A stretch of 64,000 nt of DNA, from assembly GCA_944376905.1 (NCBI GenBank), contig CALWEA010000005.1:1-64000 (forward strand), given 5' to 3'. Shown here piece after piece: positions 29,928 to 35,408 of the stretch. Position numbers and translations under genes: made by a program. Within the stretch, counting starts at the first letter, position 1, and every line of letters starts with the position of its first letter. The stretch comes from an uncultured Clostridia bacterium (GTDB lineage: Bacteria > Bacillota > Clostridia > Christensenellales > UBA1242). The notes beneath the pieces are model-generated. The model was not told the origin of the DNA and ran no database searches. It saw only the letters and a program-made list of their open reading frames with translations.

Positions 29928-29939
29928 TTTTTATATAAT

Positions 29940-31418
29940 TTATTTTGGTACTCCAAGTGAGTTAATAAAAGAACTTTGGGCTGATATTTCTATATCGTTT
30001 AGTAAATCTTCAGTTATTGTTACTTGCTCATTACCAGCATTTAAAATGTATGTTACTTTATCATCGTAAAGGTAGATAGCATTTACAAATACTGAGATTA
30101 TAGCCTTGCGAACTTTGATGTCTTTGTCGTTACCTTTTTGTAGTTGTTTCAAAAAGAACTTAACTTGTGGCTTGGTTAAAATAGTGCCTTTCTTTCGTTC
30201 CGCCGCCATTTGCTTTTCTAACTCTAAATGCTCTTTGTTTTTCTCTTGAATACGACTTGTGATTTGTTCTACAATAGCACCGCTTTCAAGGGCTTTAAAT
30301 AGGTTTTCTACAGCCTTTTCGTTTTCCTTTAACATCTTTTCAAGATGCTTAATTATAGTGTTTTGAGCGTCATTCTGGCAAGCCTCCGCCACCGCTTTGG
30401 CAATTATTTCTATGTTGTCATCAGTAAGAAATGAGCGACAATGTTGTATAACTAAATCTTCAATGTAATTCTTTTTTACTCTCTTCTTACCACATTGTTT
30501 AACCTTTGTTTTATTGCATATATAGTAACTATGTTTTTCTCCAGTATGCGAAGTGCCACTCGTACCAGTCATAAGGCTTCTACAATGCCCACAAAACAAT
30601 TTTGTTGTTAATATATAATCTTCCTTAGCCCTCGTTCTTGCTGGGGCTTTTTTATTGATTACAAGGCGTTTTTGAACCTCATTAAACAATTCATCGGAGA
30701 TTATTCTAGGAATGCCATCTTTCACGATTACATCGCTATATTTATAGATGCCTATATATTTTTTATTGCTCAGTATTCTTCTTAAAGAGTTTTTATTAAA
30801 ATCTCCGCCACGAGATGTTTTGTAGTGGTTATCATTTAGATATTGATTGATTTCAACAATAGGTGTTCCAGTAGCATATTTTTCAAATATGTATTTGACC
30901 GCTTCCGCTCCGTGTTCATCTATCACATATTTGCGGTCAACGATCTTATAACCTAGTGGAATATAACTGCCAGTGCTCAAGCATTTGGATGCAGACACTT
31001 TCATACCTCGCATTACTTTTTGTCCTAGTTCTTTGCTATAATATTCAGCCATTCCCTCAAGCACTGCTTCCATTAAAACGCCACTCGCATCATCGCTTAT
31101 ATTTTCTCGAGCCGAAATTACTTTAACTCCGTTTTTCTTCAATTTGGCTTTGTATGTAGCACTGTCATAACGGTTACGAGCAAATCTATCAAGTTGGTAA
31201 ACTAATACTCCTTGAAACAAATGACTTTTGCTGTCAACAATCATTCTTTTAAATTCTGGTCGATTGTCAGTAGTTCCAGAAATGGCTCTATCAATGTATT
31301 CGCCAACGACAGTGTAGTTATTTCTTCGAGCATAGTCATAACATTCTTTTAATTGTCCCTCAATGCTTTGTTCTGTTTGATGATGAGATGAAAACCTAGC
31401 ATAAATAACAACATTCAT
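29940..31418 (-). CDS. Large serine recombinase (integrase of the element)
   Basis: Serine recombinases cut and rejoin att sites through a 5'-phosphoserine link. Resolvase domain: YARFSSHHQTEQSIEGQ (nucleophile Ser10 or Ser11), DRAISGT, and LDRFARNRYD. Recombinase domain follows (RRILSNKKYIGIYKY), then a zinc ribbon (CGHCRSLMTG ... CNKTKVKQCGKKRV, four Cys) and a coiled-coil region. 492 residues. The gene's ATG overlaps the stop of the XRE gene by 4 bases. The last residues GVPK are encoded by the att repeat and the stop lies just outside it. After excision the frame would instead continue for about 19 codons. Confidence 0.93.
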   Translation of the reverse strand: MNVVIYARFSSHHQTEQSIEGQLKECYDYARRNNYTVVGEYIDRAISGTTDNRPEFKRMIVDSKSHLFQGVLVYQLDRFARNRYDSATYKAKLKKNGVKVISARENISDDASGVLMEAVLEGMAEYYSKELGQKVMRGMKVSASKCLSTGSYIPLGYKIVDRKYVIDEHGAEAVKYIFEKYATGTPIVEINQYLNDNHYKTSRGGDFNKNSLRRILSNKKYIGIYKYSDVIVKDGIPRIISDELFNEVQKRLVINKKAPARTRAKEDYILTTKLFCGHCRSLMTGTSGTSHTGEKHSYYICNKTKVKQCGKKRVKKNYIEDLVIQHCRSFLTDDNIEIIAKAVAEACQNDAQNTIIKHLEKMLKENEKAVENLFKALESGAIVEQITSRIQEKNKEHLELEKQMAAERKKGTILTKPQVKFFLKQLQKGNDKDIKVRKAIISVFVNAIYLYDDKVTYILNAGNEQVTITEDLLNDIEISAQSSFINSLGVPK

Positions 31419-31918
31419 TTTTTAGCCTCCCAAACCATAGTTCCTAAAATATCATCAAGTTCATTATGACAAAGTTGTTTGTAGCCCGCTTCCAATATAA
31501 GAGCATTTTGAATTTCCTTTTTTTCTTTAATATCGTGATTTTTACACTGATATTTTATATGTTCTCTTATGCTATTCATTAAGAAAATAAAGTTATTGTT
31601 TTTTATAAATTTATTGGTTAAACCTTTAAAATGTTTTTCTACAGTCTTAATATTGTTGACAGCATCATCATCTAAGCCAAATTCTCTATATATGCCTATA
31701 TTTTTTGAACTGATGCCAGTAAGAAGATAATCACACGATACATCAAAAAACTCAGCCAAAGCAATTATAATGTCTGATTTTATATTTCTCTCGTCATTCT
31801 CCCAATAATTGACATTTACTCTTGAAGTGTAGAGTGCTTTTGCAAGTTGCTGTTGAGTAAGTCCTTTCTCTTCTCTTAATGCTCTAATTCTCTCTCCAAT
31901 AGTGTTACATTCTTTCAT
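31415..31918 (-). CDS. XRE-family repressor-like regulator of the element
   Basis: An N-terminal Cro/cI helix-turn-helix (IRALREEKGLTQQQLAKALYTSRVNVNYWENDERNI) occupies residues 8-60; the rest (to 167) is helical and unrecognised. It is co-transcribed and translationally coupled with the recombinase. The ribosome site AAGGGG is good. The divergent spacer holds an inverted repeat TGTTAC...GTAACA that is a likely binding site, so the protein probably controls both the integrase and the rightward transcript; this is inference. Confidence 0.85.
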   Translation of the reverse strand: MKECNTIGERIRALREEKGLTQQQLAKALYTSRVNVNYWENDERNIKSDIIIALAEFFDVSCDYLLTGISSKNIGIYREFGLDDDAVNNIKTVEKHFKGLTNKFIKNNNFIFLMNSIREHIKYQCKNHDIKEKKEIQNALILEAGYKQLCHNELDDILGTMVWEAKK

Positions 31919-31942
31919 AATTCAAACCCCTTGTATCTTTTT

Positions 31943-32036
31943 TGTTACTTTTCTTTTGTTTTTTATACCAAATTTTATTTTACCTATATAATATTTATAT
32001 AAGCAAAATCTGTTACTATTATTATTCAATGTAACA
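31943..32036. promoter_or_regulatory. Divergent control region with TGTTAC operators
   Basis: TGTTAC at 32011-32016 and its complement GTAACA at 32031-32036 form a 26-base dyad; a third TGTTAC lies at 31943-31948. TATAAT on + at 31987-31992 is a candidate -10 for rightward transcription. Confidence 0.45.
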
Positions 32037-32077
32037 ATTTTGTCAAGCAAAAAGAAAAGATAAAAGGGGTAAATTTT

Positions 32078-32236
32078 ATGGCTACTAAAAACGAACAACT
32101 TATTCAGGCTCGCCGAGATTATTACAAGAACTGGCGAAAGAACAACAAAGACAAGATAAAAGAATACAATAAAAAGTTCTGGTCAAAGCAGGCTGATATG
32201 GTTGTTTACACACAATCGAGTGAAAATAAGCCATAA
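32078..32236 (+). CDS. Very basic 52-residue protein
   Basis: Too short for most gene callers, but it has an AAAGGGG ribosome site seven bases before the ATG. About a third of the residues are Lys or Arg, with ARRDYYKNWRKNNKDKIKEY and FWSKQA, an amphipathic basic helix of a kind common in small proteins of mobile elements. It probably binds nucleic acid (inference from charge only). It is divergent from the XRE regulator and is followed by an overlapping small frame and the non-coding stretch. Confidence 0.6.
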   Translation: MATKNEQLIQARRDYYKNWRKNNKDKIKEYNKKFWSKQADMVVYTQSSENKP

Positions 32237-32405
32237 ACAAGTAAATTCCTTTGCTTGCCTTATAAAAGACCTTATAACCCCATTTATCGAGCAAAATAAA
32301 GCACTCTACATTGATTATCTAAGATCAATACAAGATACCGATGAAGATGCTAGAAAAGAACTAGAAGTCATAGAAGAAAAGTTAAAGGAAGAAAGGGACA
32401 AATAA
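32220..32405 (+). CDS. Possible 61-residue small protein, overlapping start
   Basis: The frame opens at GTG 32220 inside the end of the previous gene, so coupling is possible. There is no convincing ribosome site. The product would be helical and acidic towards the end (RKELEVIEEKLKEERDK), a short coiled coil. It may be real or a remnant; a single-base frameshift would join it to the basic protein. Confidence 0.35.
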   Translation: MKISHKQVNSFACLIKDLITPFIEQNKALYIDYLRSIQDTDEDARKELEVIEEKLKEERDK

Positions 32406-32409
32406 ATTG

Positions 32410-32985
32410 CAATAATTTAGATTTAAAGTGCAGGTAGCGGTTCGGCTGAATGACGATGTCGTCTAAGGCGGTTAGTAACCGTTGTGAATTGACGGTGGTG
32501 TGCCCACAAAACGCACCACTAAGAGCACCACACAGCGAGGTGTATAAATAACAATCTGGGTTGGAAGTCTATAGACGAAAGTCGGGAGCAGTCAATTATG
32601 GACGGGGTATAGATAGTCCGTGCATCATAGCACTAGTTGGCTGAGGGCGAACTCAATAGAACGATAAGTCGAAGCAGTTGAGAACGAAATTTCTTTTAAA
32701 AGACCGAAACAATTCACACGCTATCGGTGGCGGAAGTAGTTAAGTAAAACGAAGAGCCATAACATAATCTACGCATTGAACAATGTGCAATAGTTTGAAA
32801 CTCCAGCAACTTTTAGCACCTATAGGGAGAAAACTCTCTAAACTCCAAATCAAAGCAGTTGAGTTTAAAAATATAGGTCGTTTGAAAATTTACTCTCTAA
32901 ATACTCTTATAATCTTTAGGGGTGTATGGGGTTTGTCGGCAAAAATAAACGAGCATTACTCATTAAAGGTTTTGCTCGATTTTTA
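32410..32985 (+). ncRNA. Candidate large structured non-coding RNA
   Basis: This stretch has no credible protein and a different base composition from the rest of the window: 31 of 60 bases in 32461-32520 are G or C. It is full of hairpins: CGGTT/AACCG at 32469-32481; an 8-pair stem at 32495-32519; CACC/GGTG at 32526-32542; GAC-GAAA-GTC with a GNRA tetraloop at 32574-32583; GGAC/GTCC at 32600-32619; GTGC/GCAC at 32620-32633. A three-way junction lies at 32819-32877 (CCTATA/TATAGG outside, GGAGA/TCTCT and AAACTC/GAGTTT inside). It ends at a terminator at 32950. I cannot assign it to a class. Size and place next to a tRNA within an element recall ROOL- or GOLLD-type RNAs. The 5' end is uncertain. 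Confidence 0.55.
32950..32985 (+). terminator. Terminator of the candidate RNA
   Basis: CGAGCA (32950-32955) pairs with TGCTCG (32973-32978), followed by ATTTTTA. The loop is long, 17 bases, but the six-pair stem and T-run are clear. Confidence 0.55.
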
Positions 32986-33059
32986 TATATAAAATATATA
33001 ATGCTTTTGGATGTGATAAAAGTGAAAGTTGTTTTTGAAATAATGGGTCGCCCATCAAG

Positions 33060-33542
33060 TTATTCTATATCAAAGACAACCTTGCAGGTTTCTAACAATT
33101 TATAAGGCGAATAGTCAGCATAATATAATTTAAAGTTTATTTCATAATGGTTTGGTTCAAGAGCCATATAAAAATAAACATACTCATTTGGCTTGAAAGC
33201 CAAAATTCGGCTTCCATTACCGTAAGGTATACCATACATTAGATTTACATTTCCATTTTGTAGGGGTTTCTCTTCGCCACCATTTATAGAAAGATAAAAT
33301 AATAAGCCAGCAGAAGAATTCCTTATTTCATAGTTAAACATTTCTTCAGTATATAAAAACCTAAATAATATGCTATGAGTGGTTTTAAAATCGATTTCGC
33401 TACTATGTGGTGGTGTTATGCCAACAATTTCAATTTTAAATTCATCAACTGTGTCATTATTATCGTTTGAACAAGCACACAAAAACGTCATAGGCAGTAG
33501 TATGATCATTAATAAAATAATAATTCTTAATTTGTTTTTCAT
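33060..33542 (-). CDS. Hypothetical lipoprotein
   Basis: Signal peptide of type II: basic start, hydrophobic run to residue 20, lipobox LCAC with Cys24 as the lipidated residue. The remaining 136 residues look like one beta-rich domain and have no family I recognise. AAGGAT precedes the ATG. It starts 11 bases after the stop of the Mrr-like gene and is probably co-transcribed with it. A short hairpin (ATGGG/CCCAT at 33043-33055) follows the stop. Confidence 0.7.
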   Translation of the reverse strand: MKNKLRIIILLMIILLPMTFLCACSNDNNDTVDEFKIEIVGITPPHSSEIDFKTTHSILFRFLYTEEMFNYEIRNSSAGLLFYLSINGGEEKPLQNGNVNLMYGIPYGNGSRILAFKPNEYVYFYMALEPNHYEINFKLYYADYSPYKLLETCKVVFDIE

Positions 33543-33553
33543 ATATAATCCTT

Positions 33554-34150
33554 TTAAACTTGATTAGATAGTTTATTTAATATCATAGCCAAATCATTTC
33601 TAGTTATAAGTTTTATATTTCTTTTATTTGCAAGGTTTTTTGCTGCTGGGGTAAAGTCATTCGCCGATGTAACAACCCAGCCTTCATTACAATCATAATA
33701 ACTCATTCCAGAAATAACCTCTTGCACCGCCTTTATGCCGACTGACTTATTGTATTTCTTGACTTGTATTCCTATTTTTGTTTGAGTTTGATTTTTTTCA
33801 GCAATAACATCTATGCCATAATCTCCCGACTTTCTTGTTGTTGTGGCTTTGAAACCCATATTTCTTAAAAGTCTTGCGACCCATTCTTCAAACATATATG
33901 GTGTTAGATTATCAATTTGTGATATATTTGATTTAATTATGGCTTCTTGCAGTTCTCTTTCTTTTTTGGTTTTATTTATTTTTATAAGTATCGAAATCAG
34001 TATGGAGCCCAAGCAAAATGCAAGCATTACAAATCCCATTATTATAATAGACTTTATTTGAGATATGTAGCCTGCAAAAAGCATTGCAATTACTATTGGC
34101 AGTATGCATAATCCAAAAAATCTAAAACCAAATTCAGCATCTTGTTTCAC
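33554..34150 (-). CDS. Membrane-anchored Mrr-like restriction endonuclease-fold protein
   Basis: Two transmembrane helices (about 11-30 and 34-57) precede a PD-(D/E)xK domain of the Mrr_cat type. FEEWVARLLRNMGF with Glu88/Glu89, GDYGIDVIAE with Asp114, and QVKKY with Gln129 and Lys131 give the complete active site; the end (GWVVTSANDFTPAAKNLANKRN) is the usual Mrr-family tail. It should cleave DNA, perhaps modified or incoming DNA near the membrane; the family has members in phage defence, but no methylase is here. Start is GTG at 34150, with GAGGT upstream. Operon with the lipoprotein. Confidence 0.82.
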   Translation of the reverse strand: MKQDAEFGFRFFGLCILPIVIAMLFAGYISQIKSIIIMGFVMLAFCLGSILISILIKINKTKKERELQEAIIKSNISQIDNLTPYMFEEWVARLLRNMGFKATTTRKSGDYGIDVIAEKNQTQTKIGIQVKKYNKSVGIKAVQEVISGMSYYDCNEGWVVTSANDFTPAAKNLANKRNIKLITRNDLAMILNKLSNQV

Positions 34151-34304
34151 AATTACCTCGATATTTATATACTATAACATATTTTTATAAAAATATCTAG
34201 TAATATTAAATATATTATTGAATAATAATTCATTTTGTTATGTATAGTTAAATCATAAAAAGTCCTATAACCATTAAAATATATTTATAAAAATGGAGGC
34301 GGTT

Positions 34305-34610
34305 ATGGACATAAAAGAAATTGTTGCTAGAATAGGCATAATAAGAACCAGAGCAAATCTCTCAGCAAGGGCATTGAGTTTAGCAATAGGCAAAAATGCA
34401 AGTTATATACATTTGCTGGAAAGCAGTAAAACAACTTTTGAACCATCTTTATCAGTTTTACTTGATATAATAGAAGTGTGTGGATCTACGCCAGAAGAAT
34501 TTTTCTCTTATGACATAAATCAATATAAACAAGATAAACAAACATTAGAGTTCTTAAAAACTTTATCTCCTTACCAAAAAGAAGCAATAATGAATTTATA
34601 TAAGAAGTAA
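34305..34610 (+). CDS. Small XRE-family HTH protein
   Basis: A 101-residue helix-turn-helix of the Cro/cI type: IGIIRTRANLSARALSLAIGKNASYIHLLESS, with a short helical C-terminus. The start is placed at ATG 34305 rather than ATG 34293 because GGAGG (34295-34299) lies between them. It abuts the ImmA-like gene, whose ATG follows the stop directly. Confidence 0.8.
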   Translation: MDIKEIVARIGIIRTRANLSARALSLAIGKNASYIHLLESSKTTFEPSLSVLLDIIEVCGSTPEEFFSYDINQYKQDKQTLEFLKTLSPYQKEAIMNLYKK

Positions 34611-35258
34611 ATGCTTATATTTGATTATATTCGTTTTTGTTTGTATAATAGTAGTATGATAAAAGAAACAGACCTTACAGAAGAAGAAAAAGAAAAAATT
34701 GTAACATATTTTGGCTATTTACCAGAATTCCATTTTTACGCTTTGGTTAACATAGAAGAGGTAAATAATATTGATGCACCAAAGTTTGCAGAAAAAATTG
34801 GAAGTGATAAAACAACCAAAGGTAAATTCTCTTATATTGACAATGAAAATTATATAGCAACAATAGGCATAAGAAATAATCTTTATCACGAAGTAGCACA
34901 TCTGATTTTTTATAACGAGATGCAAAAATATTTTCCAGTTAAAGAAGATTATACGAGATTTTTTATTGATGAACTTATTGCTGAATATCATAGCACAAAG
35001 TTATTAGGTAAAAGCAATATTTACATCCAGTATAAGATAAATAGAATAAAAAATAATATGGTTTATAAACCTTATTTGATAGGTGCATATTTAGCATATA
35101 GTGAAAGTTCAAATGAAATAACTACAAATGCACCAAGCCAGATTGTAGAAGAGGCTGAAAAGGCTAAGAATGCTTTAAAGTTTGATAGAGAGAAAATTAT
35201 TTCTCTCGATTATGATTTATTAAAAGAAGTCTATAAACAACAAAAAACAGCACCTTGA
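34611..35258 (+). CDS. ImmA/IrrE-type metallopeptidase-like protein
   Basis: The zinc-peptidase signature HEVAH lies at residues 93-97 and a downstream DELIAEYHS supplies the third acidic ligand, as in ImmA and IrrE proteases that cut XRE repressors. The length of 215 is usual. Coupled to the XRE gene just before it, so the peptidase is expected to act on that regulator. The N-terminal 20 residues may be extra; ATG 34656 is an alternative start. The stop lies in the arm of a terminator. Confidence 0.72.
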   Translation: MLIFDYIRFCLYNSSMIKETDLTEEEKEKIVTYFGYLPEFHFYALVNIEEVNNIDAPKFAEKIGSDKTTKGKFSYIDNENYIATIGIRNNLYHEVAHLIFYNEMQKYFPVKEDYTRFFIDELIAEYHSTKLLGKSNIYIQYKINRIKNNMVYKPYLIGAYLAYSESSNEITTNAPSQIVEEAEKAKNALKFDREKIISLDYDLLKEVYKQQKTAP

Positions 35259-35273
35259 TAGATGCTGTTTTTC
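35243..35273. terminator. Bidirectional terminator at the right end of the element
   Basis: AAAACAGCA (35244-35252) pairs with TGCTGTTTT (35263-35271), with T's on both strands. It closes the ImmA-like gene and on the other strand can end the tRNA-Glu transcript. Confidence 0.8.
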
Positions 35274-35333
35274 TTAAAGCCAAATTGTTATTGCAAAGCC
35301 ACCTTTGAAATAATAGTTCGCTTTATGCTCGGT

Positions 35334-35408
35334 TGGTACTCCCAAGGGGAATCGAACCCCTGATTCCGCCGTGAGAGGGCGACGTCTTAACCGCTTGACC
35401 ATGGGAGC
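35334..35408 (-). tRNA. tRNA-Glu (anticodon CTC), CCA encoded
   Basis: On the minus strand the acceptor GCTCCCA pairs with TGGGAGT, the anticodon stem GCC/GGC holds CTCTCAC with anticodon CTC, and the T arm reads GGGGTTCGATTCCCC. CCA follows. Its 3' end is the right att repeat of the element. Confidence 0.95.

What the first reader, a model, noticed from the sequence alone, without database searches (positions are those of the whole stretch)
32410..32985. A roughly 570-base GC-rich, stem-loop-dense stretch may be a large structured RNA carried by the element
The sequence shows a sharp rise in G+C against the neighbourhood, no credible protein, at least six short stems including a GAAA tetraloop and an 8-pair stem, a clean three-way junction at 32819-32877, and a terminator. 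That combination is what one sees in large bacterial RNAs such as ROOL, GOLLD, OLE or IsrB-linked HEARO RNAs. No IscB/IsrB-type nuclease is beside it, and I cannot match it to any class by eye. It stands in an integrative element next to a tRNA, as ROOL and GOLLD often do. It could be a new class, a diverged member of a known one, or an intron relic.
Basis: partly seen in the sequence, partly recalled or inferred. Interest (0 to 1): 0.78.

Follow-up and report, generated by a model that had tools for sequence, protein, structure and literature searches.

The report
Orphan RNA-like island in mobile element
A 5.4-kb mobile DNA element inserted in a tRNA gene of a gut Clostridia-type bacterium carries a 560-base stretch that looks like an RNA gene rather than a protein gene; it matches no known RNA family and has only one other known copy, so it is a credible but unproven new RNA.

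Summary
The G+C island is real. The 293-nt core 32433-32725 has 46% G+C against a window mean of 26%, and no other 293-nt stretch in the 64 kb reaches 43%. It lacks a protein and any codon (period-3) signal, is purine-rich on the + strand, and matches the composition of this genome's RNase P and tmRNA. "Stem-dense" holds only locally: five hand-picked modules fold better than shuffles (z -2.1 to -3.9), but the whole region has z of only -1.4 to -1.6, against -3.3 for RNase P and tmRNA. No Rfam family (ROOL, GOLLD, OLE, HEARO and introns included) reaches its cut-off. The region lies in a 5.4-kb serine-recombinase element bounded by TTGGTACTCC repeats, one inside tRNA-Glu. It follows two small genes in an operon divergent from the repressor. 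Sister elements, one in the same genome, keep those genes but carry two protein genes in that slot. The only homologue found, in another genus, is identical over the RNA, so covariation cannot be tested. Best reading: an orphan, probably structured noncoding RNA (or structured 3' UTR) occupying a cargo slot of a small integrative element. Function and class are unproven.

The parts
32405..32990 (+). Candidate noncoding, probably structured RNA region (orphan); G+C-rich core 32433-32725, A+T-richer 3' part
   Evidence: G+C outlier, no period-3 signal, no protein in six frames, no Rfam match, identical in the G203/L024 copy
32433..32725 (+). Core domain closed in the predicted fold by GGUAGCG/CGCUAUC and UGUGAAUUG/CAAUUCACA
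   Evidence: Predicted fold; z about -2.0, best 2.4% of windows; the long-range pairing alone is not beyond chance
32589..32643 (+). Predicted three-way junction: 10-bp stem CAGUCAAUUA/UAGUUGGCUG plus two 4-bp hairpins
   Evidence: fold z -3.04 for 32587-32645
32817..32880 (+).
   Evidence: z -2.84 alone; not in the fold of the whole region
32940..32992 (+). Terminator-like hairpin CGAGCA...UGCUCG followed by AUUUUUAU; likely 3' end
   Evidence: z -3.85; not called by the strict terminator scan
32078..32236 (+). smallA, 52-aa gene upstream in the same operon, conserved with the recombinase in sister elements
   Evidence: 43% identical to the sister-element protein, BLASTP 9e-12; weak PHROG 14214
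32220..32405 (+). smallB (GTG start assumed; longest ORF starts at 32202), conserved partner of smallA
   Evidence: Local alignment to the sister protein not matched by any of 2000 shuffles; default BLASTP reported no alignment
31415..31918 (-). XRE/Cro-type repressor divergent from smallA
   Evidence: Pfam HTH_3 1.2e-15; several GTTAC/GTAAC sites in the divergent region
29940..31418 (-). Large serine recombinase (Resolvase, Recombinase, Zn ribbon domains); its 3' end overlaps attL
29945..29954 (.). attL core TTGGTACTCC
   Evidence: Repeated at 35333-35342; both read TTGGTAGTCC in the other host
35333..35342 (.). attR core TTGGTACTCC at the 3' end of tRNA-Glu (35334-35408, - strand)
33060..33542 (-). 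Lipoprotein-like cargo gene
   Evidence: N-terminal signal/lipobox-like sequence; no Pfam family above cut-off
33554..34150 (-). Mrr-type restriction endonuclease cargo
   Evidence: Pfam Mrr_cat 4.9e-32; PADLOC Mrr-like
34293..34610 (+). Second XRE protein (91% identical in sister elements)
34611..35258 (+). Unassigned cargo protein with HExxH-like motif (HEVAH), next to XRE2
   Evidence: no Pfam match

Best explanation
The stretch 32405-32990 is the 3' part of an operon transcript (smallA - smallB - RNA) of a 5.4-kb serine-recombinase integrative element. It makes a noncoding, probably structured RNA of about 560 nt ending near the hairpin at 32950-32985. Proposed working: while integrated, the XRE protein (31415-31918) keeps the divergent smallA promoter low. 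On derepression the transcript is made, and its 3' part folds into several stem modules that act as a stable RNA (a scaffold or regulator used by the element during excision or transfer, or a protective/regulatory 3' UTR). Shown here: the noncoding RNA-like composition, the element's boundaries, and that this slot holds two protein genes in sister elements, so the RNA is a replaceable cargo module. Inferred: transcription, its start and end, structure as a whole, and function.
For: Only G+C-rich island in 64 kb and top G+C among 67 ORF-free stretches; long, G+C-rich intergenic regions in A+T-rich genomes are the published signature used to discover structured RNAs (PMC6429828). G+C and strand bias match the genome's own RNase P and tmRNA. 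No codon periodicity, no protein match. Local modules fold better than shuffles; core in the best 2.4% of windows. Same strand as, and directly after, smallA/smallB, with no predicted promoter of its own. Carried unchanged between two genera.
Against: Whole-region fold is not significant (z -1.44 to -1.55), well short of RNase P and tmRNA from the same genome (z about -3.3). Strongest long-range helix no better than chance. No diverged homologue, so no covariation test. Identity in the second copy reflects recent transfer (neighbouring genes are also about 100% identical), not constraint. Sister elements do without it, so it is not an essential part.
Confidence: 0.5

Rival explanations
1. Ordinary long 3' UTR or noncoding spacer acquired from a more G+C-rich replicon: transcribed perhaps, but with no function as a folded RNA.
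For: Whole-region fold close to shuffles; absent from sister elements; the element is a mosaic with ends of different ancestry.
Against: Unusually compact G+C core on an A+T-rich background with RNA-like strand bias; several local modules fold better than shuffles; small mobile elements rarely keep 560 nt of noncoding filler (general knowledge).
Confidence: 0.25
2. DNA-level element: an origin of transfer, replication or packaging of the integrative element, with stems acting as single-stranded DNA.
For: The element has no relaxase or replication gene among those tested, so it must be mobilised in trans, which needs such a site. The sister element has a strongly folded noncoding region beside its tRNA.
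Against: No inverted repeat of 10 nt or more except one short palindrome, no iteron array, and a clear purine strand bias that suggests an RNA product.
Confidence: 0.1
3. Relic of a group I or group II intron, or a diverged ROOL/GOLLD/OLE/HEARO RNA.
For: Size and mobile-element setting fit.
Against: No hit to any of these models even at E 10. No GNRA hairpin with 5 or more pairs in the stretch, as domain V of a typical group II intron would give. No IscB/IsrB/TnpB or reverse transcriptase in the element.
Confidence: 0.07
4. Decayed protein-coding gene(s): remains of the two proteins found in the slot in sister elements, or of others.
For: The sister slot holds two protein genes.
Against: No period-3 signal, in fact less than shuffles; no similarity in any frame; G+C much higher than in the sister genes.
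Confidence: 0.04

Closest known systems
ROOL RNA (RF03087) and GOLLD RNA
   Same: Large (about 580-660 nt and over 800 nt) noncoding RNAs of phages and prophages, often near tRNAs (PMC12286853); similar size and mobile setting.
   Different: No covariance-model match; here the tRNA is the integration target, not a tRNA island; predicted overall structure is much weaker; host element is a 5.4-kb serine-recombinase element.
OLE and HEARO RNAs
   Same: Large or ornate noncoding RNAs of Gram-positive bacteria or IS-type elements.
   Different: No model match; no IscB/IsrB nuclease and no OLE-associated gene beside it.
Large noncoding transcripts of phage ICP1 and its PLE satellite
   Same: Unclassified, abundant noncoding transcripts in phage or satellite genomes (PMC7567579).
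   Different: Those are shown by RNA-seq; no sequence relation was tested and this element has no demonstrated helper phage.
Sister elements in G000:C8 (L134) and G013:C10 (L133)
   Same: Same recombinase (56%), smallA, smallB and XRE2 (91%).
   Different: Two protein genes (150 and 167 aa, no Pfam family) occupy the place of the RNA; the L134 copy lies beside tRNA-Asn.

Membership tests
ROOL RNA (RF03087) | Match to the family covariance model | tested here: not met
   No hit at gathering score or at E up to 10. Direct genome search with the model failed for technical reasons.
ROOL RNA (RF03087) | Phage/prophage context, often near a tRNA island | tested here: inconclusive
   In a mobile element, but only one tRNA, which is the integration target.
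ROOL RNA (RF03087) | Homo-octameric RNA cage | not testable with these tools
   Needs cryo-EM or native gel.
GOLLD RNA | Match to the family model, conserved 3' region | tested here: not met
   No hit in Rfam.
OLE RNA | Match to the family model | tested here: not met
   No hit in Rfam.
HEARO / IscB-type omega RNA | Model match and adjacent IscB/IsrB nuclease | tested here: not met
   No model hit; no such nuclease among the element's proteins.
Group II intron (incl. circularly permuted) | Domain V hairpin / Rfam group II models | tested here: not met
   No Rfam hit at E up to 10; no GNRA hairpin with 5 or more pairs within the stretch.
Group I intron | Rfam group I model | tested here: not met
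   No hit at E up to 10.
New structured RNA class | Covariation in diverged homologues | not testable with these tools
   Only identical copies found: BLAST in family, order, class and second-genus genome samples, covariance model R1 in 247 family genomes and 60 element loci, plus phages, plasmids and viral patterns.
New structured RNA class | RNA-like composition and no coding signal | tested here: met
New structured RNA class | Fold clearly more stable than shuffles | tested here: inconclusive
   Whole z -1.4 to -1.6, core about -2.0 to -2.4, post hoc modules -2.1 to -3.9.

The most novel reading that the evidence does not exclude
The region encodes the first representative of a new class of large (about 560 nt) structured noncoding RNA that travels as a swappable cargo module in small serine-recombinase integrative elements of uncultured Christensenella-like gut bacteria.
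Probability: 0.35. Interest if true: 0.65.

Novelty: new variant of a known kind. Interest (0 to 1): 0.36.

Why it matters
Large structured RNAs of mobile elements (ROOL, GOLLD, OLE) are few and their functions are largely open. A further class in a very small element, with a natural comparison (sister elements in which protein genes take the same slot), would help to ask what such RNAs do. At present it is one unproven candidate with no independent homologue.

Tried and rejected
Known RNA families: Rfam at gathering score and at E 10, only chance-level hits (Glutamine riboswitch 14.9 bits against a cut-off of 35; two plant/plastid models). Homologues by DNA: none in plasmids or phages at E 1e-5; only short chance matches at E 10. 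None in genome samples except G203. Short matches in family genomes lie in unrelated DNA where checked. Viral contigs: exact 26-mer none; two 16-mers and one degenerate 17-mer gave only unrelated loci. Covariance model from the core: own and G203 copies only. G+C islands near 60 related recombinases: some are tRNAs, none is like the target. Antisense pairing of the RNA with start regions of the element's genes: not beyond shuffles (lipoprotein gene, 35 of 300, the best). Repeated 17-nt motif AARTCRAAGCAGTTGAG (32666, 32847): found elsewhere without wider similarity. Searching genomes with the ROOL model failed twice.

Full report
OBSERVATION. The stretch 32410-32985 was re-read. Its G+C is the outstanding feature. 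The best 293-nt windows, around 32433-32725, have about 0.46 against a mean of 0.265 for the 64-kb window, and no other place reaches 0.43. Among 67 ORF-free stretches in about 144 kb of the same genome it sits in the one of highest G+C, also one of the longest (the crude ORF cut-off counts the two small genes into that stretch). Using long, G+C-rich intergenic regions of A+T-rich genomes to find structured RNAs is an established approach (PMC6429828). Two true structured RNAs of this genome served as yardsticks: RNase P (G+C 0.433) and tmRNA (0.374), both with G over C and A over T on the sense strand. The target shows the same on the + strand. No reading frame is credible, none has a Pfam match even when read through stops, and the period-3 signal is absent (0.12, against 2.6-7.5 for the element's larger genes). 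RNase P itself scored 2.35 in this test and the short smallA/smallB stretch only 1.15, so the test is a guide and not a proof.

STRUCTURE. The whole region folds at z -1.44 (10 of 100 shuffles as good), against about -3.3 for RNase P and tmRNA. The core 32433-32725 has z about -2.0 to -2.4, within the best 2.4% of 212 windows sampled on both strands. The appealing long-range pairing that closes the core (GGUAGCG/CGCUAUC with UGUGAAUUG/CAAUUCACA) is not beyond chance by itself: 56 of 120 shuffles have a long-range helix as good as the best here. Pseudoknots, which these programs ignore, could lower the apparent stability of a real RNA.

THE ELEMENT. Comparison with the only other copy, in G203/L024 (titled uncultured Christensenella sp., another genus of the same family), shows a shared block 29933-35406 with unrelated flanks. 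Its ends are direct repeats TTGGTACTCC at 29945-29954 and 35333-35342, the latter at the 3' end of tRNA-Glu. In G203 both repeats read TTGGTAGTCC, following that host's own tRNA. So this is a 5.4-kb integrative element at tRNA-Glu with a large serine recombinase, an XRE repressor, a divergent operon smallA-smallB-RNA, a lipoprotein-like gene, an Mrr-type endonuclease, a second XRE protein and an unassigned protein with an HExxH-like motif. The middle (about 30.8-33.8 kb) is nearly identical between the two hosts, with none of the three differences found in 32000-33100 falling inside the RNA, while both ends are diverged. The identity therefore reflects recent exchange, not measurable constraint.

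SISTER ELEMENTS. A search with the recombinase across the family found two relatives at 56%, one in the same genome. Both keep smallA (43%, BLASTP 9e-12), a smallB homologue (no shuffle of 2000 reaches its alignment score) and XRE2 (91%). Between smallB and XRE2 they carry two protein genes of 150 and 167 aa without Pfam families instead of the RNA. This indicates that smallA and smallB are real genes, that the RNA slot is a replaceable cargo position, and that the RNA is not a fixed working part of this type of element.

HOMOLOGUE SEARCH. No diverged homologue was found by BLAST in phage and plasmid records, in sampled genomes of the family, order, class and second host genus, by a covariance model of the core in 247 family genomes and 60 recombinase neighbourhoods, or by motif scans of viral contigs. 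Metagenome contigs could not be searched. Covariation, the decisive test, therefore remains undone.

CLASS. Rfam release 15 gives no match at gathering score and only three chance-level hits at E 10. ROOL, GOLLD, OLE, HEARO, group I and group II introns are thus not supported; the ROOL-specific genome search failed technically. The resemblance to ROOL and GOLLD is limited to size and mobile-element setting (PMC12286853). Unclassified large noncoding transcripts are also known in a phage and its satellite (PMC7567579).

MECHANISM. Most likely the RNA is the 3' part of the transcript that starts at the XRE-controlled divergent promoter; no promoter-like site directly upstream of it was found. 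It would then be made when the element is derepressed. Whether it acts as a free RNA, a scaffold for smallA/smallB, or a stabilising 3' UTR cannot be told from sequence. I put about 0.5 on a structured noncoding RNA or 3' UTR with function, 0.25 on functionless noncoding sequence, and the rest on a DNA-level site, an intron or known-class relic, or decayed genes.

Noticed in passing
L134:2990-3400 (G000:C8), beside tRNA-Asn 2760-2834: The sister element in the same genome has a different noncoding region with long inverted repeats that folds far better than shuffles (z -7.3 on one strand, -5.8 on the other); no Rfam or plasmid match. It may be a transfer/replication site or another RNA.
   Followed up: partly
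window 29940-29960: The attL core lies inside the last codons of the recombinase gene, so each integration gives the recombinase a different C-terminal tail (LGVPK here; read-through into host DNA in L024).
   Followed up: partly
window 29945-35342 vs L024: The element is a mosaic: the middle is about 100% identical between genera while both ends are diverged (the 215-aa right-end protein only 58% identical).
   Followed up: partly
window 32712-32761: CGGAAGUAG...GAAG resembles the core of the glutamine riboswitch (14.9 bits, cut-off 35); probably chance.
   Followed up: no
window 32666-32682 and 32847-32863: A 17-nt motif AARTCRAAGCAGTTGAG occurs twice in the RNA, each time on the 3' side of a predicted hairpin.
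   Followed up: partly
window 31904-32035; L133:3034-3209: Repeated GTTAC/GTAAC sites in the divergent region of both elements, candidate operators of the XRE repressor.
   Followed up: no
window 35654-57394: A 7246-aa open reading frame of a repetitive surface-type protein directly beyond the tRNA-Glu target.
   Followed up: no
L145:4241-4935, L178:2220-2475, L188:12149-12628: Short shared noncoding stretches (up to about 80 nt, 71-84% identity) near related serine recombinases; no Rfam match.
   Followed up: no
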